NCBI GenBank assembly: GCA_000611775.1
Contig: KK106983.1
Span: 4,779,818-4,843,817 of the forward strand
DNA length: 64,000 bases
From: Umbilicaria muhlenbergii
Lineage: Eukaryota > Ascomycota > Lecanoromycetes > Umbilicariales > Umbilicariaceae
Direction of reading: 5' to 3'
Shown: positions 2,365 through 52,054 of the stretch, piece by piece
Numbering within the stretch: position 1 is the stretch's first letter
Layout: each line of letters begins with the position of its first letter
The notes under the pieces: generated by a model
The model's database searches: none
Told to the model about the DNA's origin: nothing
What the model saw: the letters and a program-made list of their open reading frames with translations, nothing else
Made by a program: the position numbers and the translations under genes

Positions 2365-3446
2365 TTACTCCTCCATCTTTTCTCCCTCCTCTGCCGGCTT
2401 CTCCTCTTCCTCATCATCCCCCTCCAGTGCCTTCTTAGCGGCCTTCTCTGCTTCCTCAAGTATGTGCTTCGGTACCTCCTCGTGTCTCCCTTTTGTCGGT
2501 CCGTCTAGTGAACTGATCCACGTCATCTCGAGCTCGAAGTCCTTGTCTTTGCTGTCTTCGTGTGCGACATGAATTATTCGGGCAGCTTCCTTGACGCCTT
2601 CGTGGAGCGTAAGGGTGCCGGATGCTAGATCTAACTTCTCGAGTTCTGCTTTCGCGGCCTGTCTACCTTTTCCCGTTGCTGCTCCATAGTAACCCTGTGG
2701 CTCCGTCAGCATGGACGGCTCCTAAGTTGGCGATATTGTGTCAACGGTACCCAGTAGAGACCACTCGGCTCGATCATGTACAAACCTGGTCCGCCTGCTT
2801 TGGCACCCTCGACCTTCCCTCCCGAGCCCACTTTAGGTCCGGTTCCAACTTGTCCATCCACAGGTAGCTCAGCTTCTGAATCCCATGCGCCCACTATCGC
2901 CGTCACACCGAATGGTCGTACACTAGAGTAGAGTGTATACGCCTGAACATAGCCGCCTAATCTGCTAGCCAATGCTGCTATGGGGATGGGATTTTTGTAC
3001 GTTGACCGCCATGATGAAGCTTCGTCGCGAGCTCTGGACACGAAATGGCGACCGTCTGGTATTAAGCCTGATGACACAACGCCGATATTTCTATCCACCG
3101 TCGCTATGCGCTTGTTGGCACCTGGTTTGAGTAGTTTGCTGCTGATGATCTTCTCTACCGCTAGGACCACTCCGTCTTTACACCTTATGCCGACGGATGT
3201 GCCTCCATTCTCTACTGCCTTGACCGCATATTCGACCTATACGCAGGACGACATTAGAACGGTAGACTGCTGACCACCGGAAAAGAACCATCTCACCTGG
3301 AAGTTCCTGCCGTCAGGTGAGAAGACCGAATTGGAGAGATCGTAGCCCGTCCCTATGGATGTCTGCAAAGTAAAGGATTTGGTCAGCCTGCTTAAAATGG
3401 TATAGGTGTGATGATGTACGAAGCTGAAGCGATATATACTGACCAT
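2365..3446 (-). CDS. PRE10: 20S proteasome subunit alpha-7 (alpha type-3)
   Basis: An alpha-ring subunit of the 20S proteasome core. Spliced, it reads [32 protein letters not shown], the hallmark of proteasome alpha subunits (YD-S-FSP-GR--QVEYA-KA). After it come KDGVVLAVEK, the RHFVSRARDEA region, GLYMIEPSGLYWGYYGAATGKG, and an acidic tail (DDEEEEKPAEEGEKMEE) characteristic of the PRE10/PSMA3 subunit. Exons on the minus strand are 3446-3444 (start codon only), 3362-3297, 3236-2751 and 2694-2365. Introns lie at 3363-3443, 3237-3296 and 2695-2750. The start exon holding only ATG is inferred because the intron donor (GTCAGT) follows immediately and the next exon begins with the conserved TSIGTGYD. 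Its promoter region is shared with the divergent gene at 4018. Confidence 0.94.
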
Positions 3447-4017: not shown

Positions 4018-4975
4018 ATGGCATCTTCCATGAACTACCAATGCCAGGGCTGCGGTGCCTTCACAGAAATACAGCAAGCCATGCCAGAGTTTCTGGATCA
4101 CCACAACTGTGCAGCTGTGAGTCACGTCAATATCACTCAGGAGGACTACTGATAATTTGATACAGTGCGGCCTCAGTGCGCAGGAGGGCCATATCAAACT
4201 GCAAACCGAGTTGGCTTCGTTGTTTTCTCGGAACCTCACCATCGCAAATAGTGCTACGGAAGGAGCTAGCACCACTCAAGGACTTAGCCCCCAGACGGGT
4301 AACTCGATCACCTACAGCATAAGTCAACATTATCACCATTCGGCGCATGTCGTACCCTCGAAAACATCCTCGCATACTTCAGACGCTGGTCCCGAATCTT
4401 TGCCTTCCTCCTCAACTCAGGAGTCAGTGCAATACACCCTCTTCCAACACAATATTGATCCCTCGCGTATATCATCCTCGCAGCTGGTGATGCTTGAACA
4501 GGCCGGCCCAGAGGAGCGCGCACGACTACTTGGACTCTGGCGTCTCACTCCTCCGGAAACCTCCTATTTTGGGCTGCACGAGCCCGATCACGATGACAAC
4601 GTGGAGACACAGATGGAAGAAGACTGCGGCGGCAGTTTTACAGCAACGTCAGGTGGGGAGCCAAGACAAGTTGCGGAACCGTACATCATGTCGGGGTACG
4701 AGAGTCTCGCACAGAGAGACTATGAGCAGCAGGCGAACCATGTCTACAACCCTCTCGGTCTATCAAAGACATACTCGCCGCTCATCTCACCAATGGGAGG
4801 TCAGTACAATCGAGCGACGGATCCTATTTACGGCAGCAAAGAGTGGTGGCATCATTCCATGTCACACCTACCCATGGAGCATCAATATGGTATGTTTGAC
4901 CAGATGAATCAATCTCAACATCAGCCGCCAAACTTCGTGGGCATACATGGTCCGGAGGATGAGGAGATGCTCTAG
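4018..4975 (+). CDS. Unknown protein with N-terminal Cys/His cluster
   Basis: I do not recognise this protein. Exon 1 (4018-4116) encodes 33 residues with C-x2-C (CQGC) followed by HHNC, a spacing that could bind one zinc ion. A 49-nt intron (4117-4165) joins in phase 0 to exon 2 (4166-4975). The total is 302 residues. Exon 2 has a short conserved-looking stretch (LVMLEQAGPEERARLLGLWRL) that may form a helix. The rest is rich in Ser, Gln, His and Tyr and probably disordered, ending in an acidic GPEDEEML. There is no signal peptide or membrane segment. A DNA-binding or adaptor role is only a guess from the Cys/His cluster. Confidence 0.75.
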
Positions 4976-6340: not shown

Positions 6341-6930
6341 TTAGATCTTCTCCACGGTCGCGGACAAGTCGTCGAGCGCACGCTTGGCCTTGGAGCAGAT
6401 CTCACCCGGGCGGTAGCAGAAGTGGTGGACAGCCGCGGCTTCTGGCTCCGGGGCAGCAACTGGCTCGGCGATGGCTGCGGCAACGGCCTCGGCGGCGCGC
6501 TTGGTCTTGGAGCAGATCTCGCCGGGCCGGTAGCAGAAGTGGTGGACGGCCTCTGTGAGATATGTTAGCATTAGGACGAGGGGGGTGGGGGAAAGGTATG
6601 CTTACCAGGAGCGGGGGCGGGAAGAGCCGCAGCGTGTGCCTCTGCGACGGCTTCCGCGAGGGCGAGAGCGTCACGCTTGGCCTTGGAGCAGATCTCGCCC
6701 GGGCGGTAGCAGAAGTGGTGGACTCTGGCGTCCGCCTCGGCGTTGGCTGCAGGTTCAGCGACGGCCTCAGCGACGGCTTCGGCGGCACGCTTGAGCTTGG
6801 AGCAGATTTCGCCAGGGCGGTAGCAGAAGTGGTGGGCCGCTTCTGCGTTTGCTGCCGGCGCTGGTGCTGCGGCCGCCTCGACGGAGGCAACGGCCACGAG
6901 GGCGGTGAAGATGAGCGAGGTGACCTTCAT
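6341..6930 (-). CDS. Alpha-type peptide pheromone precursor, four repeats
   Basis: Secreted mating-pheromone precursor of the S. cerevisiae alpha-factor / filamentous ppg1 type, 178 residues, the ligand of a Ste2-type receptor. Exons are 6930-6606 and 6552-6341 with a 53-nt phase-1 intron. Residues 1 to about 19 form a signal peptide (MKVTSLIFTALVAVASVEA). Four copies of HHFCYRPGEICSK follow at residues 33-45, 71-83, 112-124 and 151-163. Each ends in a Lys-Arg Kex2 site (SK-L/A/T-KR) and is preceded by X-Ala/X-Pro dipeptides suited to a Ste13-type dipeptidyl peptidase. The C-x3-G-x2-C core equals the known ascomycete core W-C-x3-G-x2-C, but Phe stands in for Trp. An in-frame upstream ATG (7035) would spoil the signal peptide, so I use 6930. 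The mature ends are inferred. Confidence 0.92.
6380..6834 (-). repeat. Four 48-bp pheromone-coding repeats
   Basis: Near-identical coding units lie at 6787-6834, 6673-6720, 6497-6544 and 6380-6427, each encoding the 13-residue core plus X-Lys-Arg. The intron separates units 2 and 3. The amino acids of the core are identical in all four, while spacers differ, which indicates selection or gene conversion on the peptide. Confidence 0.93.
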
Positions 6931-8518
6931 GTTGACGATGTTTGAAGTTTGAAGATGTTTTTGGAAGATGTGATGGTAATGAAAGACTGCTGTAGAGGTT
7001 GAGGCAGTTGATGTGGATGTGGAAGTGAGTTTCAAAGGAGAGACTTTGGGTGAAGAATCTAGGGTTTCAAAGGAAGCTGAGGTTTTATAATCGCCCGATT
7101 CCTGAAAAGTCTCAATAGAATCCGAACAGTGTTCAAACAGTCAGACAGGTATCGATAAAGGATTCCTAGTCAAAAGGAAGCCTATCATCCAATCTCAGGC
7201 GTAGTTGTGTCAATAAAGCGTAATGGGTGACGGATATTTGTCAATAAGGATTCGGCTCTAGAGCAATAGAAAGAACAAGGAGAGGTCTCTGAGAACTCCT
7301 CCGGGAAAGGCGGGACTGAACGAAGATCACTGTAGGGCAAGAGAAAGATGAGCCTGAGCAAACGAGTCTAAGAGTAACATTGCATCAAAGGAACATTATG
7401 GTCGATCACATTCTAGAAATCATGTCCCTTCCAGGAAGGAAACAAAATAGTGCATGACCTTCGCAGACTCAATTCCAATTGCCTGAAACATAGCGCTCCT
7501 GGTAGCCATCTATCCGAGATCAGATATTAAGGCTGGAGACCTGGAGGCGTTGCACCTGGCATGACCAAGAGTCTTCCCAGAACTATGTCTCTTTATGCGT
7601 ATATCAAAGAGAGATTTGTATCAGCAGGACAACTGTGCCTTTGTAGGTGAGCAATATAGCTCTATGTTGTTTAGGTTATTGATACCCTAAAACGGACGAT
7701 GTGGCGCTAAGCCCGATTAGGCGAGCTCGACCTGTTAGCAGCAACGCTGAAGCGCACCGGCAAGGAATAGAAGGAACATAGATAGAACAAGCGATAGAAC
7801 TGTCATGACAGATCTGATAGGTAGTGAAAGCCATATGACGACATATCGTCGAGGTGGTGGGGCCTCTGCCACATGCGGGTTTGACCTACCAAGCCCCATG
7901 ATCAATGAGCCTTGATTGCACACATGAGCACACCCTAAAAAGTATAGCTTCCATGTCACTACTGAAATTAGAAGCCAACACAATGTAGCATTGGTCGTAA
8001 AGCAATAGCTACTCATAGTAGAAACTATGTGGTTTTCACAGAGGTTGGCAGCGTTGGATACGCATCCAGAACATTGAGACCTAAAGCACCGAATGACTCT
8101 AAGAAAAGCAGGAGATTGCAAGTATGTAGAGAATTTCAAAACGTTTATACATGCTTCTTCAACCTTTTTCTCTTATCTTCTGGGGACAGAGCGTGATGCA
8201 ATGAAGGGTCCGCGGCGCCAGGAGTATGACTGGATCATCAATGCCTGTCTCCGCATAGTGAAAAGTCTAATACTCGTGTAGAATGGTGCTTGCCATTCCT
8301 GAGAAGGTCGCCACTGAGAATGGACTATCAGTGCACAGAAGTGCTTTTGGTGTGGTTTAGCGGAGAGAAATGGTGAACGTGGGAATGGTGAGCCCCATTA
8401 TGCGGCTCTGTACTAGCGTGGTTTCCTCGTGGTCAGTGCCCGCCTTGCTTTTTCGAGCTCCAGCATCATCTCCCAAACACTCGTCAAGTCTCTTCCTGTT
8501 CTGCGCAGCTCCTTCACC
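6931..8518. other. Intergenic, pheromone promoter and IDH1 promoter
   Basis: 1.6 kb between two divergent genes. Open frames on both strands (for example 7735-8139 minus) have no recognisable similarity or codon pattern. It should carry the regulatory region of the pheromone gene. No repeat was seen. Confidence 0.55.
7083..7089 (-). promoter_or_regulatory. Possible TATA box of the pheromone gene
   Basis: Read on the minus strand this is TATAAAA, about 155 bp upstream of the chosen ATG. That distance suits the 5' UTR of a strongly regulated fungal gene. No other promoter element is claimed. Confidence 0.45.
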
Positions 8519-9965
8519 ATGCTTGGTCGCACTTCTACTCGCACTGCTCAGGTATGTAGATTGGGACAATATGGTTCTGAATCCTTTACAGCTCGCAAGG
8601 GTAAATTGAAGTGCTAACATATCGCCTTGTTATCAGTGCCTCTTGCGGGCGTCACAACCATGCATTGCCCCGCGGACTGCAGCGAGGAGTATGTGGTATA
8701 GAAAGATTTATTAGCAGCGTATCTCTCTGACTCATCATTACAGCCATGGCCACCGTCCAGTCCGACATTTTCAAACCCACCAAGTACGGAGGGAAGTACA
8801 CTGTGACCCTTATCCCAGGTATGTTGGACGGCCGCTTGACTGCCATATTCTCCCATTGACTGTGGAATATAGGTGACGGTATTGGTGCCGAGGTCGCCGA
8901 GTCCGTGAAGACCGTGTTCAAAGCGGACAATGTACCGATTGAGTGGGAGCAGGTCGATGTCACTGGAGTAGAATCGGGAGACAAGCATTCGGAGGAACTG
9001 TTTCGAGAGTCGATAGCTTCGTTGAAGAGGAATAAACTTGGGCTCAAAGGTATGAGGCACCCAGCTAGTGACGATCACTTCGCTGGAACGACAAAGGTAT
9101 CCTACATACGCCCGTTGAACGGTCCGGTCACCAATCCTTCAACGTCGCATTACGTCAAGAACTCGATATCTACGCCTCTATAGTCCTCATCAAGAACATC
9201 CCTGGCTACAAGACTCGCCACGACAACGTCGATCTATGCATCATCCGTGAAAACACCGAGGGCGAATACTCCGGTCTGGAACACCAATCTGTCGAAGGAG
9301 TCGTTGAGTCACTCAAGATCATCACACGGGCAAAATCTGAGCGCATCGCAAAGTTTGCATTCAGCTTCGCTCTTGCAAACAATAGGAAGAAGGTCACTTG
9401 CATACACAAGGCAAACATTATGAAGCTTGCAGATGGACTTTTTAGGAACACGTTTAAGAAGGTTGCAGAAGATTATCCAACATTGGAGACCAACGATATG
9501 ATCGTAGACAACGCCTCTATGCAGTGTGTTTCAAGGCCGCAACAATTCGACGTTATGGTTATGCCCAATCTGTACGGTGGTATCCTGTCCAATGTAGGAG
9601 CTGCGTTGGTTGGTGGACCTGGTATTGTACCAGGGTGTAACATGGGCCGAGATGTTGCTGTCTTCGAGCCCGGATGTCGACATGTTGGACTCGACATTAA
9701 AGGCAAAGATCAAGCGAACCCAACCGCAATGATCTTGTCTGGCTCAATGCTCTTACGACACCTTGGTTTGGATGAGCATGCGAATCGCATCTCCAAGGCA
9801 GTTTACGACGTTATTAGCGAAGGGTGAGTAGACCCAGCCATCACTCTGGGGCCGAGATGTGACTAACTTTGATTCAGTCAAGCTCGAACTCGGGATATGG
9901 GTGGTAACTCCACTACCCACGAATTTACTCGAGCGGTCTTGGACAAGATGGAAGCTGCGAACTAG
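8519..9965 (+). CDS. IDH1: NAD-dependent isocitrate dehydrogenase, subunit 1
   Basis: Mitochondrial regulatory subunit of NAD-isocitrate dehydrogenase, which oxidises isocitrate to 2-oxoglutarate in the TCA cycle. Exons are 8519-8551, 8637-8688, 8744-8818, 8873-9049, 9097-9823 and 9878-9965. The N-terminus is a basic presequence (MLGRTSTRTAQ then RTAARTMAT). After it come VTLIPGDGIGAEVAESV, DIYASIVLIKNIPGY, the segment DLCIIRENTEGEYSGLEH, and NIMKLADGLF. The C-terminal third has the metal and substrate region (DNASMQ, MPNLYGGILSNVGAALVGG) and ends STTHEFTRAVLDKMEAAN. The exon density at the 5' end is typical for ascomycete IDH1. The splice junctions restore family sequence at every joint, including LKG-ILHTPVERSGHQSFNV. 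Confidence 0.96.
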
Positions 9966-10167: not shown

Positions 10168-11083
10168 CTAGAACGTCGGCCCCCTCTTCCTCCCGGTATA
10201 TTTCGACGAAGCCTTCACCACCTTCCCCTTCCTCTCCATCTGTTCTTTCTTCCTCAAAATCCAAGCCTTCCCCCCTTTCCTCTCCTCCCTCTTCCCCTTC
10301 TCCTTAATCCTCCTCCTCGCATCCACAACATCCACCCCACTCATCCCCTTCACCACCCCCGTAATATCCCCCTGCACATCCCCCCCTCCAACCGTCAAAA
10401 CAAGATACAACTTCCCATTCTTCGTCCCGGGATCATCCTCCAGTATCCCCGCGCCAAACCCGGCCTTGATCGCCGCCCCACTGATCATACTCCTCTGCGC
10501 CTCATTCTTCGGATAAAACTGACACACCGCCCTCCCGCCCCTCCGCAAACTCGCATACAACCCATTGAAAAACCGCGCCAGTCTCCCCGCCGCACTCACT
10601 TCGCTGCTCTCCGCATTACACAACCACTGTATCGCACTGATGCTGATCGCCGCGTCGAACGTCCCCGCCCGAAACGGCACCCCCTGCCCTATATCCGCGA
10701 GCAGCAGATCCCCGTCCACGTCCCGCTGCAGCGCGATATCGAGCATCGAGGCGGATATGTCCATGCCGATCCAGATGTGGGGGCCCCCGGAGGAGGGGTC
10801 GATGCTGGAGAGGATTTCGCCGGAGAGGCCGGAACCGCAGCCGATGTCGAGGATTAGGGAGGGGGTGGGGAGGGAGAGGAGCGAGAGGGCGCGGTGGGTC
10901 ATGGTTGATTGGATGGATTGGATGCGTGAGGAGGTGGTGTATTTACGGGATTCGGCGTCGTTGTAGAAGAGGTCGGGGGGGCTGAGGAAGGGGAGGAGGG
11001 AGGGGTGTTAGTGAGGGTTAAGGGCCGGGAGGGAGGTTTTTGGGGGAGGTGCGGGCTTACAGCGTGTCTTCTGGGCGTGACAT
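10168..11083 (-). CDS. BUD23: 18S rRNA (guanine-N7)-methyltransferase Bud23
   Basis: A nuclear SAM-dependent methyltransferase that modifies a guanine of 18S rRNA (G1575 in yeast) together with Trm112 and supports 40S maturation. Exon 1 (11083-11061) encodes MSRPEDT. After a 79-nt intron, exon 2 (10981-10168) reads PPDLFYNDAESRKYTTSSR, the family start. Motif I is LILDIGCGSGLSGEIL; GMDISASMLDIAL and LLADIGQGVPFRAG follow. The Bud23-type C-terminus is basic (WILRKKEQMERKGKVVKASSKYTGRKRG). The length, 278 residues, is normal for the family. It is divergent from SVP26, so the 255 bp between them (11084-11338) should hold both promoters. Confidence 0.95.
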
Positions 11084-12419: not shown

Positions 12420-14121
12420 TTAGTCTCGCCTTACGAGCACAACCGGCCCATCGAAAGTAACTCTGCCCTTGACCCAATACATCACTAGACTCACGACAAC
12501 AACGCCCATAAAAATTGCCACGCTCCAATTGAACGTGGAAGCATCGACGGGGGTCCCATTTGGCCAGAAACACCAAAAGAATGCAAACACGGCATACACC
12601 AGCCCGCTGATGTTTACGGCCACGCCGAAGCGGCCCAGGCTCCAGCGGCATTGCGGTAGGCTCTTCGGATTGTATAGCCGGCGGTGAAGAACGCAGCTTA
12701 TGGACACAATGTAGGTCAGTAAGATGGCAACAAGCTGAAGGGAAGCCATGGCGTTGAAAGCGACCGAAGAGCCAAGGTTGATAAGGGACAGGAGGATGCT
12801 AATCAAGCAAGAGAGGCCAACGGCATTGGTAGGGATCTGTAAACTAGGGTGGACATATGATATCCACCGAGAAAAGGGAAGGCCGCCGTCGCGCGCAAAG
12901 GACCACGTCTGCCGGGATGTGGAGAGGTTGAAGGAGATGTTGCTCGCAACAAGGAGAAACAGGATGACTGCAGTGAGCGCGTTGACGCCGGCCACGGAGA
13001 CGGCATTGCGGAAGACGTAGAGAAAGGGGTAGGCGGAGGGATCGCTCAATGCGTCGTCGACGGACGGGATGCAAAATATGTAGGCTATGAGGAGGATCAA
13101 GCCCATGACACCATTGAGCAAAAAGCTACCCATTATGGCGCGTGGTACAATGAGGCCAGCATCTTTGATCTCTTCCGACATGTGGGCTGCACCATCAGAG
13201 CCTAGCAATGTCATTAGTATTGGTTGGGCCGAGTAGCTTGCTTTATTCAATAGACCTACAGACAAGACCAAAGATTGCAGATATTTGTCCAACCATAAGA
13301 CTCAAACCCATGTTGCTCCATCCGCCTCCGTTTGAGAATTGAGTGAAGACGACTTTCGCCGGTGTTTTCGGTGCTAGGGCCCACAAGACGATGATTATAG
13401 CCAGGAAACCACCTACGTGGACGACAAGCAACAGGTTTTGAGCGCCGGGCACAGCTCTAGCGCCCCAGATGTTTGAGACAAAAACAAGGGAGACCATCGC
13501 AAAGACAAGCAGCGTTCCTTGCCAATTGGTGGGTTGATAGTTTGGATTATTGACCGTGATCAATCCTTGAACAATGGTTCCACTAAGGAAGGAGCCGGAG
13601 GCATTGCCGGCTTGCCAGGAGAGCGTTGACATCCAACCCGTCATATAACTCATGAATTTCTGGTATTTTGACGGAGCAAATTCAGACACCCAGTGGTATT
13701 GTCCACCGCAAGTGGGAGCCATCGATGCCATCTCGGCCAGTGATGCGCTGATCACGCCGAATCCAAAGAAGGTCCATATGTAGGACCAGAAGAGGCCCGC
13801 TCGTCCCCCATCCACGAGTCCCTGCGTGTTCGCGGTCAGGTAGAACTCCCACGTAGCCTGCAGTAGAATGGTGAAACTCAGTGTAGACAGTGGAAAGAAA
13901 TTCCTGTTCAATTCCTGTTTCTTTCCCATGCGCCGCATCTCTCTCTTATCAAGGAGGGTGGAGCCAGCGCCGTGTGGGAAGCTCTCTGAGACGAGATCAT
14001 CGTCGATGCTGTCGTCAATGCCGTCGACAGTATGATTGGTTGATAGTTCCCTCGACGACTGTTGTAATGGTGTTTGGCCAGAACTGCCATGGTTTGCAGC
14101 GTCAGACGAAGAGGAGAACAA
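12420..14121 (-). CDS. APC-family amino acid/GABA/choline-type permease
   Basis: A plasma-membrane transporter of the fungal amino acid-choline transporter (GABA permease-like) family. Exon 1 (to 13260) and exon 2 (13201-12420) flank a 58-nt intron whose phase-1 joint gives GLVCSDGAAHMSEEIKDA, a family signature. Others visible are GQYHWVSEFAP, ISFNLSTSRQTWSFARDGGLPFS split over membrane segments, and WCFWPNG near the last helices; about 12 hydrophobic segments are present. The model is 547 residues. Oddity: the frame opens with TTG at 14121 and has no in-frame ATG before an upstream stop, so the true start is either the internal ATG at 13938 or lies in an unrecognised upstream exon. The substrate cannot be assigned from sequence. 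Confidence 0.88.
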
Positions 14122-17849: not shown

Positions 17850-19050
17850 CTAGACCGCCCCACCATACACCAACCCACACCCACAACCCGCTCCCTCCGC
17901 CGTCGCCGTCGCCGCCGCCGCCCCCCCCTCATCCACCCACTCCACCTCCCCCACCGGCACCACCTCCCCACCCCCCCGCACCTTATACTGCCTACACCAC
18001 GGCCCCCCCGCCCCCTCCCGCTGCCTCTCCAAGACCTTAACCGCCATCGGAAACGGCTGCAGCTCCGCTCCATCCTCTGGCGTGAGATTCGCGCTCTCGG
18101 TCACATAGATGAAGCCAGCTAGAAGAGTGTCGTCCCAGTGGCAGATCCACGGCGTGGCGCCCGCGGGGACGCTTTTGGCGCTGCTGCTGTGGCTGGGATC
18201 GCGGGGTGTGCGTGCTGAGAGGGAGAGGGAGAGGGAGAGGGCGAGGGCGGGTTGGAGGATGACTGTTTTGTTGAAGGGGGCGGAGAAGGTGTAAGCGGGG
18301 CCGGAGGAGGGGGCGTTGGCGTCGGTTTGCGGGACTGGGTTTATGGGGATGTGGGTGAGGTTGAAGGGTTGGGGGCCGTAGGTGAGGTTTGGACTTGCCG
18401 GGGATGGGGAGGTCGTTAGATCGATTGTGAGGGATTCGCTGGCGGGGATGGAGTTGATCTGGATGGTGAATGAGGATGGGTTGGGGACGAAGCAGGCCCA
18501 TGTTTTGGTGGCCGAGTTGTTGAGACAGCTGCTGCTATCGCGGGGGTCGGGTCTGACATCCAAAGCGTATTTGCCCAAGGGAACGGGAGGGAGGTTGGGG
18601 ACTGGAGTGGCGATTGGTACGGCGCCGATAAGACTTGCTGTTTCACTGTCGCTGACTGTTGTGGGAAGGATTGTCGTCGTGACAGTTACAGTTCCCGTCG
18701 CTGCTGAAGAGCGCAATGAAGGTGTAGAACTTAGTGTTGAGCTTGTAGGAAAAGTTCAGTTAGCGATCAGTCTCACTCTGCTGCGAAGGCTCTTACACGT
18801 ATTTATGACCGTAGAGCCCGAAAATGGCTAATGGAATGACAAAAGCTAGAAGCACAAAAATAGTGATCACCAGCCCTAGAATCATCCATGAATGCGGCTT
18901 GGAAAGACCGCAGACATTTGCTGAGGGACGGCGTTCTGCTGCGACAACGTCCAGTCCATCTTCAATCGGAACTGCTTTCAACTCATCATCGTCATGATCG
19001 TCCGGCGAAAAGGTGTCGAATCTTTCAGCAGCGTATCGTTCGTTCTCCAT
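17850..19050 (-). CDS. DUF7820-like single-pass membrane protein
   Basis: A type II-like membrane protein of a fungal family of unknown function. Exon 1 (19050-18797) encodes an acidic cytosolic head and one membrane helix (WMILGLVITIFVLLAFVIPL). A 55-nt intron (18742-18796) joins in phase 2 to exon 2 (18741-17850). The outer part follows: a Thr/Ser stalk, a W-x-C segment (TWACFVPN), LTYGPQPFNLTHIPINP, GPAYTFSAPFNKTV, ATPWICHWDDTLLAGFIYV and AVKVLERQREGAGGPWCRQY. I remember this order as the DUF7820 pattern. The total is 381 residues. The C-terminal 40 residues are low-complexity Gly/Ala and may be mispredicted if another exon exists downstream. It lies next to the secreted Ser/Thr protein, tail to tail. 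Confidence 0.8.
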
Positions 19051-20405: not shown

Positions 20406-23400
20406 TCAGTTCTGTCTTTTCCAGGGCATTCGAAAGCCGGCGGACTCACTCGACATGGTAGGTTTCCGCTGATCAGCTCCCATTAAGAGCATGGAGCTTT
20501 CCCTCCGCCGTGCTTTCATAGCTTGCATGCTGCTGGGTTCCAACGTACTGTTATGGGTGCCATACTCTGGACCCGGCATAGTGACAGACCCACTGTTGGT
20601 CTGGCCGTACATGAGTGCACCAAAAGTGGTGGGAGGCTCGTAAGATGGCTGTAATGGGATGAAACCTGTGTCGTGCTCTGCATGAGATTCACGCAATACT
20701 TGGTCATACGAAGGACCCTGCGCTGGAAATGTAACCTGTGTGTAAGAAGGTGTAGGAATGTCGGAGAATAACTGGCGTCGGGGTGATCTTATTTCCTCAG
20801 GGGTTAATGGCTCGACTGTAGCGATTTCAGTAGGCATTGCCATACCGTCCGCAGGTTTGGCCCCAAAGATGGCGTCGAATTCGGTCAAAAACATTGCGAA
20901 AACCGGGGCGGGGATGTTGAGCGTTGGTGAGAAGACGATGCCAACATTGCGGATCGTCATTTTGTTGACATCAGCATTGTTGACTACTCCGATGAGGAAT
21001 GCAGAGATGGCGCGAACCAGGCAAAAATTGACTTGCGGAAGCTTATGCACGAGGATATTGTAGGCGAGAATCTTTCTGGACTTGTCCTCGAGCTCTGCTT
21101 CAAAGCATGTCAGTATCATCGTTCACTAAACCCCACACGGCTAAGGGGTGCATACCTTGGACTGCCAAGAAATCAAGATGCAGTTCACGAGGCAGTACAG
21201 TACCTGGTAGCTCGCGTAAGTAAAGCTTCAACAGAGACGCGACGGCATGCACATCATAGTATTGGCCGTCGGCCCGGAAATCAAAGTCGCCTTCCGTATT
21301 GAAGCGTTCTCGAAGAGCCCTGATGACCACGTTGGACCCACTCAAACGAAAGATGCCCTCTTCGCTAGCAGCGTCTTCGGCCTCGAGGTATTCAAGGCAG
21401 CGATAAACCACAGCCGGGAGACATATATCAATTCCACGTGGAGGATAGTACTTGACGGCTTCAGCAAGTGGTGCACCAAAGACTGGCCGACCGGTTCCAG
21501 TCCGCTCGTTGTATTGTTGCTGAGCCAGAGTTGTGCTGGACTCGTTTGAGTGAGCCATTGCCACATCAGGCGTGCCTTTATCTCGGAAGCCCCAAATGCC
21601 TCTCTTCTTGTGTTCCTTGTCTTTTGTCTGCGGGCTTGTTGGAGGCTTGTTCCCCCATGCTCCAACATCTTGGATGACTGTAGCGTTAGTTGGACCAGAA
21701 ATGGTTTTTGACGCTTGAGCAGTATTTGTTTGACCTTGAGGAATAGATCCGGTCACGGGAGGTGAGGGAGTATCCGTCAAGTGTCTACTCGGCGCGACCC
21801 TGACCGGCGCCTGACCAGGGACTGTGTCTTCATAACTAACAGTTTGTAGGGCCTCGATGGCTTCAGGTTCCGGACCATCAATCACGACTCCGTCTTTCTT
21901 GTCTAACCTCTTCTTATATTGTGAATGAGACATCTTGCTTGACCCGCCCGAGTCAATTCGTGCAATGGAAGACCTTGACTTCTCGTCTTCAGATGAGTAA
22001 TAGTCTACATATTGAAGAAGTGCTTCGACCCAGTCATCACGCTCGTCATCGCTCTCGGCACATAGGACGTGACGTACGAGACTGGTTGAATCCTTGCGTT
22101 TCGGTTCAAGAATAAGGAATGCATGCCGGTACTGATTGTCGGGGTCCTCAAGGCCACGCGATGGTGAGGGCGATTTCTGGTGTTGGGACTGCTTTCCAAT
22201 CTGCGCATTTTGCAGTTTAATGGTGCCTAAGAGAGGGCCTCCGGGAGACTCATAGTACCGCAAGACTGGCTCATCCAGTACGAAGAATCTTGCTTTCCAG
22301 CCACCAAAATTCTTTCCGCGCTTCGTTAGGTAGCCTTCTTTTCGAAGTCTAGCATCAGGGCCGAGTGTAACGGGAGATCCGGAATGGAGAATGGAGTTGT
22401 TGGCACTGCCCTCATCGCTACTGGACTCTATGGCTTGTGCTGATAGATAATAACAAACAAGCAGTGCTGCCCTTTCATCCATCGGAGTATCCAGGACTGC
22501 CTCAAAGTATGTTTCCAGGGCCTCCCGTCTAGCGTCAATCTTCGCCGGAGCATGCCCATTGAATAAGGCCCGGTCTGGGAGTTTCGCACTCAGTGATGAA
22601 CATTGCTTTAACTGCTGATCTAGTTGGGGTAGTGAGACGAGGGCCTTTTCGAGACGCCATAGCTCCTGTCGATCCGATCTAGTCGAGATACCGAGCGTAA
22701 AGACGGGCTCTTCCTCCGAGCCCCTGGCGGCTAGAGAATAGCGAGATGGTTTCAAGCGCGACGACGTCACCTTAATCGAGATAGAGGGTAAAGCGTTAGG
22801 AGGCAGGAGTAGATTCGGGTATGACTCGGAAACGAAACCTCGATAGATCCCTTTAGACCTTACGTTGTCGCTCAAGTCATCCACACGTGGTTCTGATACT
22901 GAAACGCCATCACCTAAAGGTGCCGACCTCCCATCCTTCGATACTTGCGGCGACGTGATTGTCGCTTGATGAAAACCATCCTTCTGTGGGGCACCTGGTG
23001 AGGCCAATGAAATAGGGGTATGGGGAGGGAGAGGAATAGGATGGCGAGGAGCCCTTGGCGAAAGTGGCAAACCGGGAAAACCACCGCGCGCAGAAGGTGG
23101 GGGAGACGCCAAAGATGCCCCGACCCCATCCCGTGGCATCCTTGGTAGCGGTGAGTTCAATGGGCGATCGCTAGGGCGAGGGCTCATGGGTAAGCCGGGA
23201 CTCATGGGTGGTGGTGAAACAATAATGCGTTCGGTGACGGAAGGTGGAAGGGCAGTTGGCGGACTGAGCACACTTGCTAGTGAGGTTGGCGGATTGAGGT
23301 ACCCAGGGATAGCTGCTGGCTCGGATTCAGGTTGGATAGCTTTGGCCTGGGAGGGCCTTGGTGCCTCTTTCGACGGAGAATCTTCCGTCTTGAAAGCGGC

Positions 23401-25206
23401 CATTGATATGATCGGTGGCGGGGGGCCTTTGGAATGCTTGTCTCGCTTGGAACGGCTACGAGTCTCTTGTTCTTTCAGGGCTGCAGCATCCCGCTCCCTA
23501 TCATCCTCTTCTCTTGTTTTCCTCCTCCCTCTTTCAAAAGCTGGAATCTCGTCCACCTCGAGGACATCGTCGTACTCTGAGCCAGAGTGATCGTCCGGAC
23601 CGTAATGATGTAAATGAGAACTGACACGACCTGGCTTACGGAGATTAAGAGGTGCTGGAGGAGCCTTCCGAGGAACTGGCGCGCCTTTACCGTCCAACCC
23701 AGGCGGAGTAGACGCAGCCGCCTGCAGAGATGACCCTTCAGGTGCATTGTGCGGCGAAGGTAAGGAACGTTTTGCAGTAAAACTACTTGTAGATATGGCT
23801 GTAGCCACAATCGGTGAAACACTCGACGGGCTTTCCATTACCTCTGCCTGATTTGAACTCTTCACACTTGCGGTCCGTGGAGAGTTCATAGTGCCCGCCA
23901 GTTTATCGTCATTCGCGGTGGAAGCGGTGGAAGCAGTGGAAGCGATGTTGCCTGAACTCGACTCCTTAGAGCTTTTCTCGGGTCTCCTTAGGTCAAGAAG
24001 ACGTGATGGTGAATGCTTCTCTCCCACAACCGCAGGTACATCGGCGGTAGACTGCACAATTTCAGGGGGTCTAACAGTGTTCGAAGGAGACTGCAAGTCT
24101 ACCAGCGTAGCACTGGATTCTCGCAAGCCATCGGAGAACAACATATGGCCCTGGATGGGAAGATCATAGTGCGGATCGCCGGGGTTGGGCGATTCACTCG
24201 CTTCCCGCGGCAAGGGTTCAGTCTCCCCGTATCCAGAAGCAGTATCTGGATGAGTTTGACCTGAGACTGGTTGAGCCTGGGCAAGGTGCTCTTTCAATTT
24301 CTTCCGGTATCGTTCCTTGTCTTTCAGAGCACTACCAAGATCTTTGTTCAACCCTAGTACCAAGGCCCTCTGCTTGTCTACCAGCTTCCACAGCTGGGCG
24401 TTTTGGGTTGCCAGATGTATTTTCTCCTTCAGCAAATGATGTATCACCGCCTCGGGCGATCCTGCTGTGGATATGAGGTTCGCGATATCAGCAGGAGTTG
24501 ATATAAAAGAATCTTGTGATGACTTTCGCGACTGCGTGGTGGCTGATGAGATGGAGGAAATTGCAGAATCTATGGACGAAGTGCGGCCTAATGGACGTAG
24601 CTCTGGTCGAACGGTTGAACTGCTTGCTACTGTAGGGGCCGCTGTTGACGGAGACCTTGGAGGAGATTCGGAAGTGGATTGCGAGAACGGTAAGGGTGAC
24701 GAGACGTTCCGCAATTGGCTGTTTACCATTCCCTTAGGGGATGCGACCGTCGTCGTATCAAGAGCATCTGAGTCTTTCGTGCGAGACGCTTCTTCTCGTG
24801 TTGGCAACTCCTCCGTCGCCAACAACTCGTCCAGCCGGTCTCGGGGCGACTTGGGTTGAGAGTGATCAAGTGCTGAATTGTAACGCGGCGATCGAGGAGG
24901 ATGCTTAGAAGCTGCCACGCCTTTTGATATATCCTGTGATCTTGTTTCTTCTTGCGGCGAATACATCACGCCTTCTACCGTTGAACTAGAGCTGACCTGT
25001 AGAGGACTCGGCGCGGCCTTGCGCTGTGTTTGGGCAGAGCGTGGCAGGGGAAGATTGAAGCGATGGCCAAGAAGATCACGAGAGCCAGCGTTGTGTATCT
25101 TCTGCGGTTCAGGTATGGTCTGTCGCACGCCTGGGACTCGCTCTGGGTACTGATCCATCCCACGCCCATCTCCCGACTCCACTCGTTCGGCCCGCGACGG
25201 AGACAT
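20406..25206 (-). CDS. BEM3: Bem3-like RhoGAP with PX and PH domains
   Basis: A GTPase-activating protein for Cdc42/Rho-type GTPases, acting at sites of polarised growth. Exon 1 is 25206-21156 and exon 2 is 21094-20406, with a 61-nt intron inside the RhoGAP domain (FLAVQ-ELEDKSRK). The total is 1579 residues. Order: a disordered N-terminus; a coiled coil near 255-310; a long Pro/Ser-rich segment; a PX domain near 805-935 (SIKVTSSRLKPSRYSL); a PH domain near 950-1090 (KEGYLTKRGKNFGGWKARFF); and RhoGAP near 1240-1440 with the arginine finger in GIFRLSGS (about residue 1288) and the KLYLRELP motif. A disordered tail follows. Domain order matches yeast Bem3. The start ATG at 25206 is the first in frame; an upstream exon cannot be excluded. 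Confidence 0.93.
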
Positions 25207-27660
25207 CGGCCCACCGTGACTTGGACACGCTTGCGGAAGCTCAATCAGACCATTGATGAAGCCTCAATGCCAGCATTGAGGAGCCTCAGAGCACCAGGTG
25301 GCGTATGATGATCTCAGGCGCGAAGGAGGAAGAATGCAGGCATGCAGTCGAGGTTGGCGTGTGCGCTGGCTCAGGCTCACCTCACCCTGTGCTGTGCAAC
25401 TGAACCTTTCGACGTCAGCATCAAACACGGTCGACGACACGAGACCAGCACGACGACCTCGGCGCGGATGACTTCAGAGGACGCAGCTGAAGCTCCACAT
25501 CTAAGGTACATCAGGCACGGGCAGGGCACACATCCCAGGGTTATTGTGGAGAAAGAGAAAGGACGGGGTTCTCTACCGAAGCTTGTGCAGCCGCGAAATG
25601 CACGAGGGACGTCGTTGCAGGGATGATGGTCTCGTTCCGGACACGCTTGCATGGGTGCCTTGCTACGGGGGCGAGGGGGGCTGAGGGGGGCTCGGCCGGC
25701 TTGTCTACAATCATCGAGAGTGTCCGTTGGGCTTGAGGCCTCCGCTTCGGATTGCAGTACGTGGATGTCCTCGTGTAGCTTGGTCCGGTGCAAATGCCCA
25801 TGATGCCGTCCCGCTCGAATTGGTTGGTGGAAGGACTTCACGTGTGCATCATTACAGCGTTGGTGCCATTCCGCTCTGGTTGGAATGATGCAAGTCTTGT
25901 CCGGTCTTGTCCAGTCTTACTCTGATGATAAGCTGGAAACGGCCGTCGCTGCCTGCGATGCACGATGACACTGGGAAGGAGGCATTCATGTTTTCGAGAA
26001 CGATGCACCTGGAGTAGCGGATTGTGGCCCGTTTCCTCTTCACGTGGCCATGGTCACGTCTGGAGCTAGAAGTTCTGCAAGTGTAATTTGTCGGGGATGG
26101 GAAGTGGGTGTGATGGCTCAGCTCTTAACTTCCAGACAGCAAATAAAGTGGCATGTGGATGAACTAGTCTAGGTTCATAGAGCACTATACTTTGCTGCCT
26201 CGACGCCCTACCTACATGGTCGGTACCTTACCGTACTCTGGAGAAGTACTCGTGGAGTCGTAGCCGCCAGAAGCAACCCCCGGGCCGCAAACAGAGCTGA
26301 TACTTTTGCTGATCTTACTTTCGAGCTGGCACTTGCAGATTCCAGGGAAGCAGTATTATGCACTATTCCACACGCTGCGCACCAAACGTTTCATCACTTT
26401 TTGTCGGGAACAACCATTGGGGCAGCTTCGAAGATCCGGATGTGGGGGTCCCCTGATCGCCGAGTCTCAGGGGGAAACATCAAAACAAAGCATCACAAGC
26501 ATCACAAGCATCACAACTTAATTTCAAGTGGGCGGCGAAGGGGCACTGGCGGCCTGGCAGGTGACGAACACATCAACCGGACGGCGTCTGACTGATTGGC
26601 AGACCGGCCGGGCTACTTGACATCGATGATTGACCCCTGAGCGCTGACCGCTGCGTTCCTTGCAGATGACCCGCCTCGGCCGCATCCTAAATTCCCGTCC
26701 CGCGGAGCGGCGCAATAGAACGTGATAGTCGTTCAGGTAGAGCTTGATTGGCCAGTAGCGGCTAAGGGGTGAGATGGCTAAGGGTGATGGGTGATGGCTA
26801 ATGCGTTGCATGGCACCGTTTGCACCGAACCATTCAACGGCAGTCTGATTTGGCAGCAAGTCCTCCTGGATAGGGGTACCGTCTGTTACAAGCACAGCAG
26901 TGCAAGCAACCGGATCAGGCATCATATGACGACGAGTTTGGTTCATGGAATTCGGTCCAAACCCCGTATGAGGTTTGTGCATAAGTTCCACCCACTGTAC
27001 AGACTTCCATGCGTCCCATATGGACAGGATACGTACCGGTCGGGACACCGTATCCACTTGCACAACACCATCGAGCTGTCTGACCTCCAATCAAAGGTAC
27101 GAGTACTCTCAAACGAAATGAACTTCCAGAAGACGTAATATAAGAGTGCCTAGCTGCAAGTGAGCTTAGCTGCAAAGCACGAGTACCAAGTAGGTTGAAG
27201 GTATGACGGGAGAACGTTCCCCACCGGCAGGGCGCAGGGACTGAATGCAGTCGTCCGCTGTCGTTTCCTTCGACGACTGACACATCGAGATAGATGTCGT
27301 GAAACGTTTCATTCGGAAACACGAGAAGCTACTTGTCTCTGCTGTACAGGATCCAATTCTAGGACTCCAGAACGTTGCCCTCGTGGTTGTGAGGGTTCTC
27401 AGCTGGAAACAGTCAACTTAGGAGTAAGCTATCCTGACCGACCCCGCACTTTCCCGTGACTCCTAGATCATACCTTACTACATCCAGTCCTCCGTGCAAC
27501 TACTCTGCACCGTACTTACGCTGTCCCCGCGCTATGTCGCCGCGGCAGCTTTCCGCGGGCATACGAGGAGCTAGAGCAATGGCAAACCAATTCTTCCGTC
27601 GGATCCGTCCCTCTGTATCCTATCGATTACCACCCGATCAGCGACTGTTTTCTTCTGACT
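25207..27660. other. Long intergenic region, RhoGAP to monooxygenase
   Basis: 2.45 kb between divergent genes. Several open frames exist (the longest at 26524-27090 minus) but none has recognisable similarity or a convincing composition. A short tandem repeat is listed separately. The region probably holds two promoters. Confidence 0.5.
26488..26514 (+). repeat. Three copies of a 9-bp repeat
   Basis: Three perfect head-to-tail copies of AAGCATCAC. This is a simple minisatellite with no assigned function. Confidence 0.95.
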
Positions 27661-29975: not shown

Positions 29976-30548
29976 ATGAGGGATGTTTCATGACGGTTTT
30001 CCTAACGATGCTCATTCAGCAGCGGGGTGTCCCATCGACAAGCTAAAAAGAATCGTCGCTTTCGGGTTTGGGTCTCATCTCGATTTCATGCCTTCCTAGA
30101 TATTCCGAAACATCTGGTCAACCACGATTCTTCTTGATCCAGTGTGAAAGCAGATTACGGCGACCAGTACACTTGTGTTTGCGATGTGGCTGCCAGTGTT
30201 GCCCCTGCTGCTGCCCATGGAATGTCGTAGAAGGTCCGCGAAGGCAACCGTAGCTTCGCTAATATTCCCTCAGTAAGCGAAACATCGAGAAAGCCCTAGC
30301 AGGTACGAATCGCTTCCTTTGTTTACGTCACGCTGATGTCGCGATACCCCTCGTACTTTCCAGAACCACTGATCTCAAGTATATATACGCATCTTGAGTC
30401 GACCTAATCCCCCTCCTCATCACATCAACCTACAACAAAAACCAAAATTCCTACAAACACTTATATGCAAATATACACAACCACCACCAGCAAGCTTCCA
30501 AAAGTCTTCAAGCTTTCTAAACTCCCAATAACCAAACCCACACGCAAA
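29976..30548. other. Monooxygenase 3' end and HSP20 promoter
   Basis: 573 bp between same-strand genes. The distal part holds the HSP20 promoter elements listed below. An in-frame ATG at 30465 could lengthen the HSP20 protein by 28 residues, but the added stretch is unlike the family. Confidence 0.6.
30347..30387 (+). promoter_or_regulatory. Stress-type promoter elements of HSP20
   Basis: Within 41 bp lie CCCCT (30347-30351, a stress-response element core), an inverted heat-shock half pair TTCCAGAA (30358-30365, TTC-n2-GAA) and a TATATATA box (30380-30387), about 160-200 bp before the ATG. Only two clear heat-shock units are seen; a functional element normally needs three. Confidence 0.5.
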
Positions 30549-31214
30549 ATGTCTTCATTCTTCCAAACCTTCCCCGCCTCCTCGGACTTCGGTCCCCTCT
30601 TCCGCCTCCTCGACGACTACGACGTCCACCGCTCCCAACCCACCCGCGGCCACAGCGGCAGAGGCACCTCCAGCATCCGCGCCTTCCAGCCCCGCTTCGA
30701 CGTCAAGGAGATCAAAGACGCCTACGAACTCCACGGCGAACTCCCCGGCATCGACCAGAAAGACGTCAGCATCGAGTTCACCGACCCCCACACCCTCGTC
30801 ATCAAGGGTCGCACAGAGCGTGAGTACTCATCCGGCTCTCCCTCCGCTGGCGCCATCGAGGACTCCTCTTCCTCCTCTGCCGGTCGTATCACCAACGATG
30901 ATTCCCACTCCTACCACAAAGCCACCGTCGAAGACGAAGAGGGCGCCGACAAATCCTCCGACAAACCCTCGTCGACCGAGCAATCCTCCTCCACAGACGT
31001 AGCCAAGCGCTCCGGTTCCGAAGTCGAGACCCAGAAGGCCCCGCAGCATAAATACTGGGTCAGCGAGCGCATGGTCGGAGAGTTCCATCGCTCGTTCTCA
31101 TTCCCCACTCGTGTGGACCAGGACGCGGTCAAGGCCAGCTTGAAGAATGGGATCTTGAGTATTGTTGTGCCAAAGGCGACGGCGCCGTCGTCGAGAAAAA
31201 TCCAAATTGAGTAG
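30549..31214 (+). CDS. Small heat shock protein, HSP20/alpha-crystallin family
   Basis: An ATP-independent chaperone that holds unfolding proteins in the cytosol, comparable to Hsp30 of filamentous fungi. Single exon, 221 residues from the ATG at 30549 (MSSFFQTFPASSDFGPLFRL). The alpha-crystallin domain starts FQPRFDVKEIKDAYELHGELPG and runs to TLVIKGRTERE. An acidic Ser-rich insertion of about 90 residues follows, then SERMVGEFHRSFSFPTRVD and the A-x3-NGIL-x-I-VP motif (ASLKNGILSIVVPK) before a short tail. Insertions at this place are common in fungal members. Stress-type promoter elements lie upstream. Identification is secure; the start could be the in-frame ATG at 30465. Confidence 0.95.
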   Translation: MSSFFQTFPASSDFGPLFRLLDDYDVHRSQPTRGHSGRGTSSIRAFQPRFDVKEIKDAYELHGELPGIDQKDVSIEFTDPHTLVIKGRTEREYSSGSPSAGAIEDSSSSSAGRITNDDSHSYHKATVEDEEGADKSSDKPSSTEQSSSTDVAKRSGSEVETQKAPQHKYWVSERMVGEFHRSFSFPTRVDQDAVKASLKNGILSIVVPKATAPSSRKIQIE

Positions 31215-49769: not shown

Positions 49770-52054
49770 ATGACTGAACTGGGACCCGTGTTGTCTCGAT
49801 TGGGTCTTTTACAGTATCTCCGGAGCTTCGTGGACGAAGGATTCGACACTTGGGAGACTGTTCTAGAGATCACCGAGTCAGATCTGTGAGATCACCCACT
49901 GCTTATGCGCCCGCATTGGCTGACGATCGATACTTTTACTTTCACAGCGATGTTCTAAACGTCAAGCTCGGTCATAGAAGAGTGAGTCACCCACCATATG
50001 CAGCGCCTTGATCCCGTCCTCTCGGACTGAGGCAGTGTTAACACAGACGAGTAGCGGCTACAACGCGAAATATCGAATACGCGCTGCTTTCTTGCAGAGG
50101 AAGCTACAGCGTCGCCGTCACGAACAACGCCGTATGAGGACATCAATGACGACGTCAGCAACGTCGGCAGATTCGAGCATCTCCAAAGCGGCAGGAGTGG
50201 TAAGAGAAAATACCGGCGTCATCCGAAGGTGCGTAATCTCCGTATCAATCGGCGGGAAGCCTGCTCCACATGTTCTCTTGCGGCATTCGGGGACATCTTC
50301 CTTTTATCTCGTCCTTGAGAACCGAGACCTGACATGGCCTGTTGTGCCGTTTATTAGCCGGACGAAAATGCGCCTGAAAGGCCACCTTCTGCATACGTCA
50401 TCTTTTCAAACAGTACGCCATTCCTGTAACTTCAAGCTTGTATTGTGATTTCGAGTCCTGGACTGAGGAGACTTACTCTTATTGTCCAGAGACTAGAGAG
50501 GATCTGAAACCGCGCAATTTATCCTTCACCGAAATCGCCAAGCGTGTTGGGGAAAACTGGCAGATCCTCAGTCCGGATGAAAAAGAGCCCTATGAGACCC
50601 AAGCCGCAAGGGCGAAGGAAAGGTACAATGCTGAACTGGCGAAATACAAGAAGACGGACAGCTATAGGGAGTACTGCCAATACCTAGCCGAATTCAAAGT
50701 CAAGCATTCGACATCAATTCCAGGTGAGTTTGCCAGGGTCCTTACAAGACCTCAGCATACCCGAATAGCACCCGGGCTAACAGCGTTCAGAAGGAAAGCG
50801 GCCAAAACTGCATAGTGAGCAAAGTGCATCAACAAGCAGCGCGAGCACGAATAGTGCCCACGATGGTTCAGCTTCATCCGGTAGTGCCATCGCCCATGGA
50901 AGGCGCCGGGTCGATTCAGTCAGTTCCATCGGGCAATATTCAATTGCAAGTGGACATCCATCCCCCGCTGGTGTACCGCCGTGTGCCATGATTGGGATTC
51001 ACAATGCAAGGACTGGGACATTGTCACCTGCGCCGATGTCGCCGACGCCACCAGCCGTATACAGGGAGTCGATGTCGCATACGCCATTACCGGCTGCTCA
51101 TATCTATGCTACCTTTGAAGACGCTGCACACGAAAGCAATCATGGAATACTTTCGAGCTCGCACACCCTTCCGAGGATCTTTCCGGTCGAGGGACACGAT
51201 CAAAAGATGGCCCAGGACAAACTTCCTCCACTGATCACCGAGCAAGTTTCAATGGGGGGACGGAACGACCTCCCATCGGGCAATCCGAGGCGATCTCATC
51301 ACATACCTGCCCCATTCATCCAACTAAATACGTCCCAATCATCTCCCACGTCTCGATCATCCTTGTCATCCCAGATTTCCGATGGCAGCACCTCATCCTC
51401 TTATGGGGTCTATACTCCAATGACACCGGTCGAGGAATCTGGAGGCCAACGCTCATTGCCCGCGTTTTCAAGTATGCCCATGGGTGCTCCTTTCGGAAGA
51501 AAAGTGGTCGATCGCATCCAAACTCAATCTCTGCCGGCGCACACATCATCATTGTTGCCCTCATACCCTCCCTTGCATCCCTTGCAATCACAATATCACC
51601 CATCTTCGGGGTCGTCAGGTACGAACATTCATTTTCCTGAGCTCTCTTCCCAGAGTCGATAGTATATGCATTGTCTGTTATTTATCCGCTGACAACTATT
51701 GGCCATCTCAAAGATCTCCCCCACGAGAGGCATTCACTCAAGAACCTATCCCTAGCAGGCACCGCATGCATCCATCCAGAACCTCCACAAAATTTCCGCA
51801 GTCGCTCGCGGGATCTGCCCGACGTGCCGGAACGGGCCCACCACCCACAGCAAATGCCATCGTCTCACTCGTCCTTCTCCTCGCAACACGGCCAAGGATC
51901 CCCGCCAGAAGCACGTCGGAGTCTACTCCGGGAAGATTCTTCTAGCGATACCTATCTTGACTCCCCGACGACGACGGATCCGCTTTCAGTGCTGGCGTAT
52001 GCGGGGAGGCTGGTCGATCGGGACTCTCGCCGATCGCCTCATTCTCCGCAGTAG
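49770..52054 (+). CDS. SAM-domain plus HMG-box regulator
   Basis: Probably a nuclear DNA-binding regulator. Exons: 49770-49885, 49948-49981, 50055-50228, 50358-50412, 50490-50723, 50791-51618 and 51654 (or 51714)-52054. The start MTELGPVLSRLGLLQYL opens a SAM domain (to about residue 65, through TWETVLEITESDL and LGHRRRLQREI). A linker with ATASPSRTTPYEDINDD leads to GKRKYRRHPKPDENAPERPP and the HMG box at about 112-185 (SAYVIFSN-KTREDLKPRNLSFTEIAK-VGENW, ending YAELAKYKK-like). A long Ser/Pro-rich tail ends DPLSVLAYAGRLVDRDSRRSP. Length is 613 or 593 residues depending on the last acceptor. The exon joints at HMG codons restore family sequence, so the model is good although the gene has six introns. 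Confidence 0.88.

What the first reader, a model, noticed from the sequence alone, without database searches (positions are those of the whole stretch)
6341..6930. Alpha-pheromone precursor with a Phe-Cys core
Seen: four exact copies of HHFCYRPGEICSK with Kex2 sites in a secreted 178-residue precursor. Known: ascomycete alpha-type pheromones share W-C-x3-G-x2-C, as in Neurospora and Fusarium. Here the residue before Cys is Phe and the Trp often found after the last Cys is replaced by Ser-Lys. Inferred: this lineage uses a shifted ligand, probably with a co-evolved Ste2 receptor.
Basis: partly seen in the sequence, partly recalled or inferred. Interest (0 to 1): 0.8.

Follow-up and report, generated by a model that had tools for sequence, protein, structure and literature searches.

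The report
Ordinary fungal alpha mating pheromone gene
This is a fungal gene for a small secreted mating signal, made as four identical copies in one precursor; its unusual phenylalanine and serine have a close published precedent in another fungus, so it is a new example of a well-known kind.

Summary
On the minus strand, 6930 to 6341, a gene with one predicted 53-nt intron encodes 178 residues with four exact HHFCYRPGEICSK copies, each followed by x-K-R. All five minimal nucleotide changes among the copies are synonymous. It is best read as the alpha-type pheromone precursor of a filamentous ascomycete. The same genome holds one Ste2, one Ste3, a MAT1-1-1 gene near an SLA2-like gene, a Kex2-type P-domain and a Ste13-type peptidase. 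The novelty claim is weak. Xylona heveae is reported with RFCHLPGQGCSK: the same Phe before Cys and Ser-Lys after Cys (PMC6339444). Some Leotiomycete families carry Arg there. Trichoderma reesei WCYRIGEPCW shares C-Y-R-x-G-E-x-C. The Lys does not replace Trp: Fusarium repeats read PCWKAKR, so the change is Trp to Ser before a K-x-K-R tail. Receptor co-evolution was not testable, since no related genome is held. The exact peptide was in no paper of the library searched. It is a new member of a known kind, of low interest.

The parts
6606..6930 (-). Exon 1 of the alpha-pheromone precursor: N-terminal signal-like stretch and repeat copies 1 and 2
   Evidence: Spliced open frame of 178 aa
6553..6605 (-). 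53-nt intron (GTAAGC...GCTAAC...CAG)
   Evidence: Removing it joins the two open frames in frame, and the repeats continue across it; prediction only, no transcript data
6341..6552 (-). Exon 2: repeat copies 3 and 4 and the C-terminal tail ALDDLSATVEKI
6787..6834 (-). Repeat copy 1, HHFCYRPGEICSK-LKR (residues 33-48)
   Evidence: nucleotide positions worked out from the residue numbers
6673..6720 (-). Repeat copy 2, HHFCYRPGEICSK-AKR (residues 71-86)
6497..6544 (-). Repeat copy 3, HHFCYRPGEICSK-TKR (residues 112-127)
6380..6427 (-). Repeat copy 4, HHFCYRPGEICSK-AKR (residues 151-166)
7029..7089 (-). Candidate promoter elements: TATAAA at 7089-7084 and two TTTGAAAC boxes at 7071-7064 and 7036-7029
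   Evidence: Script; 2 of the 5 copies of TTTGAAAC on both strands of the window. Chosen after looking; a lead only

Best explanation
This is the alpha-type mating pheromone precursor of a filamentous ascomycete carrying MAT1-1-1. The precursor enters the secretory pathway. A Kex2-type protease cuts after each KR, a Kex1-type carboxypeptidase removes K and R, and a Ste13-type dipeptidyl peptidase trims the X-Ala/X-Pro spacers from the front. This releases four copies of a peptide with the core FCYRPGEIC, which folds around the Pro-Gly turn and is read by Ste2 on a MAT1-2 partner. Shown: gene, repeats, dibasic sites, spacer dipeptides, and presence of Ste2, MAT1-1-1 and of the Kex2 and Ste13 families. 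Inferred: secretion, Kex1 (not searched), cleavage order, exact ends of the mature peptide, expression and receptor binding. By the X-A/X-P rule, trimming would stop at VHHFC in copies 3 and 4, RVHHFC in copy 2 and possibly AHHFC in copy 1. With LKR, TKR and AKR tails the C-termini would be SKL, SKT and SKA. So the four identical cores may leave the cell with slightly different ends.
For: Four exact repeats with dibasic sites in a 178-aa precursor. The 13 core codons vary by a minimum of 5 nucleotide changes, all synonymous; 14 pairwise synonymous and 0 non-synonymous differences over 44.5 synonymous and 189.5 non-synonymous sites; uniform-site chance about 2.5e-4. The three spacers between copies are runs of 10, 12 and 11 X-A/X-P dipeptides. 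Core C-x3-G-x2-C as in published alpha pheromones. PCWKAKR tail in Fusarium matches CS-K-A-K-R. Same genome: one Ste2 match, 350.7 bits unspliced and 362.5 bits to PF02116 once spliced, and E 1.6e-26 to the solved pheromone alpha factor receptor 7ad3; Ste3 in two adjoining matches; MAT1-1-1 alpha domain, 146 bits once spliced, about 2.7 kb from a gene with an I/LWEQ domain, as in SLA2; Kex2-type P-domain; DPPIV/Ste13-type peptidase.
Against: No expression, proteome or mating data. No related genome could be searched, so conservation of the repeat in relatives is untested. Both Trp residues of the W-type consensus are absent. Pfam has no pheromone hit for the precursor: of 10 families listed, one is over its cut-off, PF17486 Cys_Knot_tox (29.3 against 27 bits), over 16 residues of a 70-position profile, which I take as chance; the other nine are under theirs. 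DPPIV and P-domain families are widespread, so their presence is weak support.
Confidence: 0.93

Rival explanations
1. The gene makes a cyclic ribosomal peptide of the ustiloxin/dikaritin type: a secreted precursor with Kex2-cut repeats whose core is cyclised by UstYa-type enzymes, for a secondary metabolite and not for mating.
For: Some Kex2-processed repeat proteins give mycotoxins (PMC6339444 abstract passage); that ustiloxin precursors have this build is recalled. The genome has UstYa-family genes.
Against: The five UstYa matches found lie on contigs C1 and C6, none on C3 where the gene lies. X-A/X-P spacers and the two-Cys core are marks of alpha pheromones, although the spacer mark is also reported in some basidiomycete repeat proteins.
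Confidence: 0.02
2. A Kex2-processed repeat peptide used for a non-mating purpose, such as autocrine density sensing, cell-wall structure or host interaction, with mating function lost.
For: F. oxysporum alpha pheromone serves as chemoattractant and quorum signal (PMC7289986). Kex2-repeat proteins without mating role exist (PMC6339444).
Against: Only synonymous changes among copies, a full receptor pair and a MAT1-1-1 gene in the same genome suggest an active pheromone system. This does not exclude an added role.
Confidence: 0.05
3. The reader's stronger claim, added on top of the pheromone reading: a shifted ligand class whose Phe-for-Trp change is matched by co-evolved residues in Ste2.
For: The change is real in all four copies, and Phe before Cys recurs with Ser-Lys after Cys in Xylona heveae.
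Against: No comparative receptor data. The position before Cys varies elsewhere (Arg, or peptide starting at Cys), and a D-Ala1,2 analogue keeps Ste2-dependent chemotropism in F. oxysporum; against this, the same paper reports that it fails to repress germination and its conclusion groups the Ala1,2 form with inactive ones.
Confidence: 0.15

Closest known systems
Xylona heveae putative alpha pheromone, RFCHLPGQGCSK (PMC6339444; sections 8 and 13 and passages read)
   Same: Phe before the first Cys, C-x3-G-x2-C, Pro-Gly turn, Ser-Lys after the second Cys; 6 of 10 positions from F to S
   Different: H-L for Y-R, Q-G for E-I, and R for H before Phe
Trichoderma reesei PPG1 pheromone, WCYRIGEPCW (PMC3068285; passages read)
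   Same: C-Y-R-x-G-E-x-C; four copies in one Kex2-processed precursor with predicted signal; 6 of 10 positions
   Different: Trp at both ends, Ile for Pro before Gly, Pro for Ile before Cys; precursor of 286 aa
Fusarium alpha pheromone precursors (WCTWRGQPCW; repeat text KRWCMWRGQPCWKAKRA) (PMC11124031, PMC10057649; passages read)
   Same: Repeat plan, X-A/X-P spacers, and the K-A-K-R tail after the core
   Different: Trp at both ends; Arg-Gly-Gln turn; 3 of 10 positions
Leotiomycete alpha pheromones with non-Trp start, RCGHPGQPCG, RCGARGQGCW, CKYVGQGCW (PMC10569646; section 22 and passages read)
   Same: Two-Cys core with G, and no Trp before Cys
   Different: Arg or nothing before Cys; Gln after Gly

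Membership tests
Two-cysteine alpha-type mating pheromone precursor of Pezizomycotina | Several near-identical short peptides in one precursor, each followed by a dibasic Kex2 site | tested here: met
   4 of 4 copies exact and followed by x-K-R
Two-cysteine alpha-type mating pheromone precursor of Pezizomycotina | Ste13-type X-A/X-P spacer before each copy | tested here: met
   3 of 3 spacers between copies trim by the X-A/X-P rule to 3 or 4 residues before Phe; for copy 1, 4 of the 9 signal cut points tried give AHHFC and 5 do not
Two-cysteine alpha-type mating pheromone precursor of Pezizomycotina | Core C-x3-G-x2-C with a turn-forming PG or GQ | tested here: met
   CYRPGEIC has PG; PG or GQ in the vast majority of Leotiomycete repeats (PMC10569646 passage)
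Two-cysteine alpha-type mating pheromone precursor of Pezizomycotina | N-terminal secretion signal | tested here: inconclusive
   Hydrophobic start MKVTSLIFTALVAVASVEA seen by eye; no predictor on hand
Two-cysteine alpha-type mating pheromone precursor of Pezizomycotina | Recognised by Ste2 and needed for mating | not testable with these tools
   One Ste2 gene is present; binding and mating need the bench
W-type consensus (WCXXGXXCW as cited in PMC3068285) | Trp before the first and after the second Cys | tested here: not met
   Phe and Ser in 4 of 4 copies; so filed with the wider two-Cys class and not with the W-type consensus
Dikaritin-type RiPP precursor (ustiloxin-like; definition recalled) | UstYa-family genes next to the precursor | tested here: not met
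   5 of 5 matches found lie on other contigs (C1, C6)

The most novel reading that the evidence does not exclude
This fungus and Xylona-like lineages use a separate F-C-x2-P-G-x2-C-S ligand class that replaced the Trp anchors, with matching changes in Ste2 that make it deaf to W-type pheromones; in addition, the four identical cores are released with different ends (VHHF, RVHHF, AHHF; SKL, SKA, SKT) as a small natural ligand series.
Probability: 0.12. Interest if true: 0.45.

Novelty: new member of a known kind. Interest (0 to 1): 0.2.

Why it matters
It adds one sequence to the catalogue of ascomycete alpha pheromones, with its receptor and mating locus in the same genome, so the ligand-receptor pair can be tested in a yeast reporter. 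It also corrects the idea that Trp before Cys is universal. It opens no new kind of system.

Tried and rejected
Exact peptide and two sub-strings in the paper library (main texts under open licences only): no paper held any of the three. Variants FCHLPGQ, FCYRPG, PGEICS, WCYRPGE, FCRRPG, FCGRPG: one paper, the Xylona report. Passages of PMC6265332, PMC12582325 and PMC4227064 gave no further peptide with Phe before Cys.

Pfam Cys_Knot_tox match of the precursor: set aside, 16 residues of a 70-position profile. UstYa neighbourhood for a RiPP reading: none on C3. Synteny: in one section of PMC13037118 and passages of PMC10569646 and PMC10182648 I found no named gene flanking the alpha-pheromone gene that I could match. 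HMG-box search for MAT1-2-1: eight matches of 12 candidates scored, none within the MAT stretch of about 19 kb fetched in two overlapping pieces; that none is MAT1-2-1 rests on place and look, not on a test. Locus L022 (left of the window) was fetched and not examined. No structure prediction was run; a single-sequence Ste2 model would not answer the co-evolution question.

Full report
What is there. From ATG at 6930 to the stop ending at 6341 the frame is broken by a predicted 53-nt intron (6605-6553) with normal borders. Spliced, it encodes 178 residues with four exact HHFCYRPGEICSK copies at residues 33, 71, 112 and 151, followed by LKR, AKR, TKR and AKR. At the DNA level a 119-nt unit appears four times: the reference copy and three others at 64 to 76% identity to it. 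In a scan of 961 stop-to-stop frames of the window no other frame held a comparable repeat before dibasic sites. A peptide search of the whole 34.8-Mb genome gave four matches at E 0.001 or better, all four in this gene.

Selection on the peptide. The 13 core codons of the four copies vary at four codons by at least five nucleotide changes, and all are synonymous: 14 synonymous and 0 non-synonymous pairwise differences over 44.5 and 189.5 sites. Under uniform change the chance is about 2.5e-4. This ignores codon bias and possible gene conversion between copies. The spacers differ in length (22, 25 and 23 residues between copies) and sequence.

Processing. After each internal KR the spacer is a run of X-Ala/X-Pro dipeptides (10, 12 and 11). 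Trimming by that rule stops at RVHHFC (copy 2) and VHHFC (copies 3 and 4); copy 1 gives AHHFC for 4 of 9 assumed signal cut points, and other products for the other 5.

The mating system in the same genome. One Ste2 match is on contig C1 (350.7 bits with one in-frame TGA). The TGA falls in a predicted 51-nt intron; a second acceptor, giving a 120-nt intron, was also in frame. With the 51-nt intron removed the protein scores 362.5 bits to PF02116 and E 1.6e-26 to the solved pheromone alpha factor receptor 7ad3. Ste3 gives two adjoining matches, read as two exons. There is one MAT1-1-1 alpha domain. About 2.7 kb from it lies a gene with an I/LWEQ domain, as in SLA2. Frames on the other side look like APN2, COX13 and APC5 by eye, recalled and not tested. 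Eight HMG-box matches were found; none lies in the MAT stretch fetched. MAT1-1 isolates in general express the alpha pheromone (PMC10182648 passage), though in T. reesei ppg1 is transcribed in both mating types. One Kex2-type P-domain and one DPPIV-type peptidase matched; Kex1 was not searched.

How unusual are Phe and Ser? The claimed universal W-C-x3-G-x2-C does not hold in published sets. Xylona heveae is reported with RFCHLPGQGCSK, sharing both oddities (PMC6339444; section 8). Leotiomycete families carry RCGHPGQPCG, RCGYPGQPCG, RCGARGQGCW, CKYVGQGCW and CKYAGQGCW (PMC10569646; section 22). Ceratocystidaceae vary further: Huntiella peptides such as NSNGGLPGELL lack Cys and Meredithiella has Trp in place of the central Gly (PMC13037118; section 13). 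Of 11 published two-Cys forms compared, 5 have Trp before Cys, 3 have Arg, 1 has Phe and 2 start at the Cys (forms taken from the passages I read, not a sample). T. reesei WCYRIGEPCW shares C-Y-R-x-G-E-x-C with the window (PMC3068285; passages). The C-terminal Lys is not part of a Trp replacement: Fusarium repeats read PCWKAKR (PMC10057649; passages), so the tail K-x-K-R is shared and only Trp to Ser differs.

Receptor co-evolution. This cannot be tested here: the genome has no relatives in the collection, and no other Ste2 with a two-Cys ligand was to hand. A report on F. oxysporum says that a D-Ala1,2 analogue keeps Ste2-dependent chemotropism but fails to repress germination, and its conclusion groups Ala1,2 forms with inactive ones (PMC7289986; passages).

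Promoter lead. A TATAAA box and two TTTGAAAC boxes begin 159, 141 and 106 bases before the ATG; the window holds five TTTGAAAC on both strands. In the 200 bases before the ATG 2 were seen against 0.025 expected, reached by about 1 of 1000 first-order shuffles; the shorter parts CTTTG and TGAAAC are weaker (about 18 and 12 of 1000, and 60 and 58 of 1000 over 500 bases). The motif was chosen after looking, so this is only a lead towards pheromone-response or HMG-type control.

Verdict. This is a sound find of an alpha-pheromone gene. The exact peptide was not found in the library searched, but the kind, the plan and both residue changes have precedents. Interest is low.

Noticed in passing
window 7029-7089: Two TTTGAAAC boxes 35 bases apart just below a TATAAA box in front of the pheromone gene; 2 of the 5 copies in the window.
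   Followed up: partly
window 50480-50650: An HMG-box exon, the genome's best-scoring PF00505 match (E 1e-10); by eye not of the MAT1-2-1 kind.
   Followed up: partly
L009:3184-3822: An open frame between the APN2-like side and MAT1-1-1 with no Pfam match; it may be an unnamed MAT1-1 gene.
   Followed up: no
window 1-64000: Of 12 other window frames scanned with Pfam, 11 had a match: SIS domain (1-468), proteasome subunit (2706-3236), isocitrate/isopropylmalate dehydrogenase family (9072-9827), WBS-type methyltransferase (10168-11007), amino acid permeases (12420-13301, 61197-62291), DUF7820 (17850-18755), RhoGAP/PH (21100-25263), HSP20 (30408-31214), P450 (42808-44169), M20 peptidase (58081-59565); 4121-4975 had none.
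   Followed up: partly
G000 C1 and C6 (L024-L028): Five UstYa-family matches elsewhere in the genome, three of them within about 4.3 kb on C6, perhaps a RiPP cluster.
   Followed up: no
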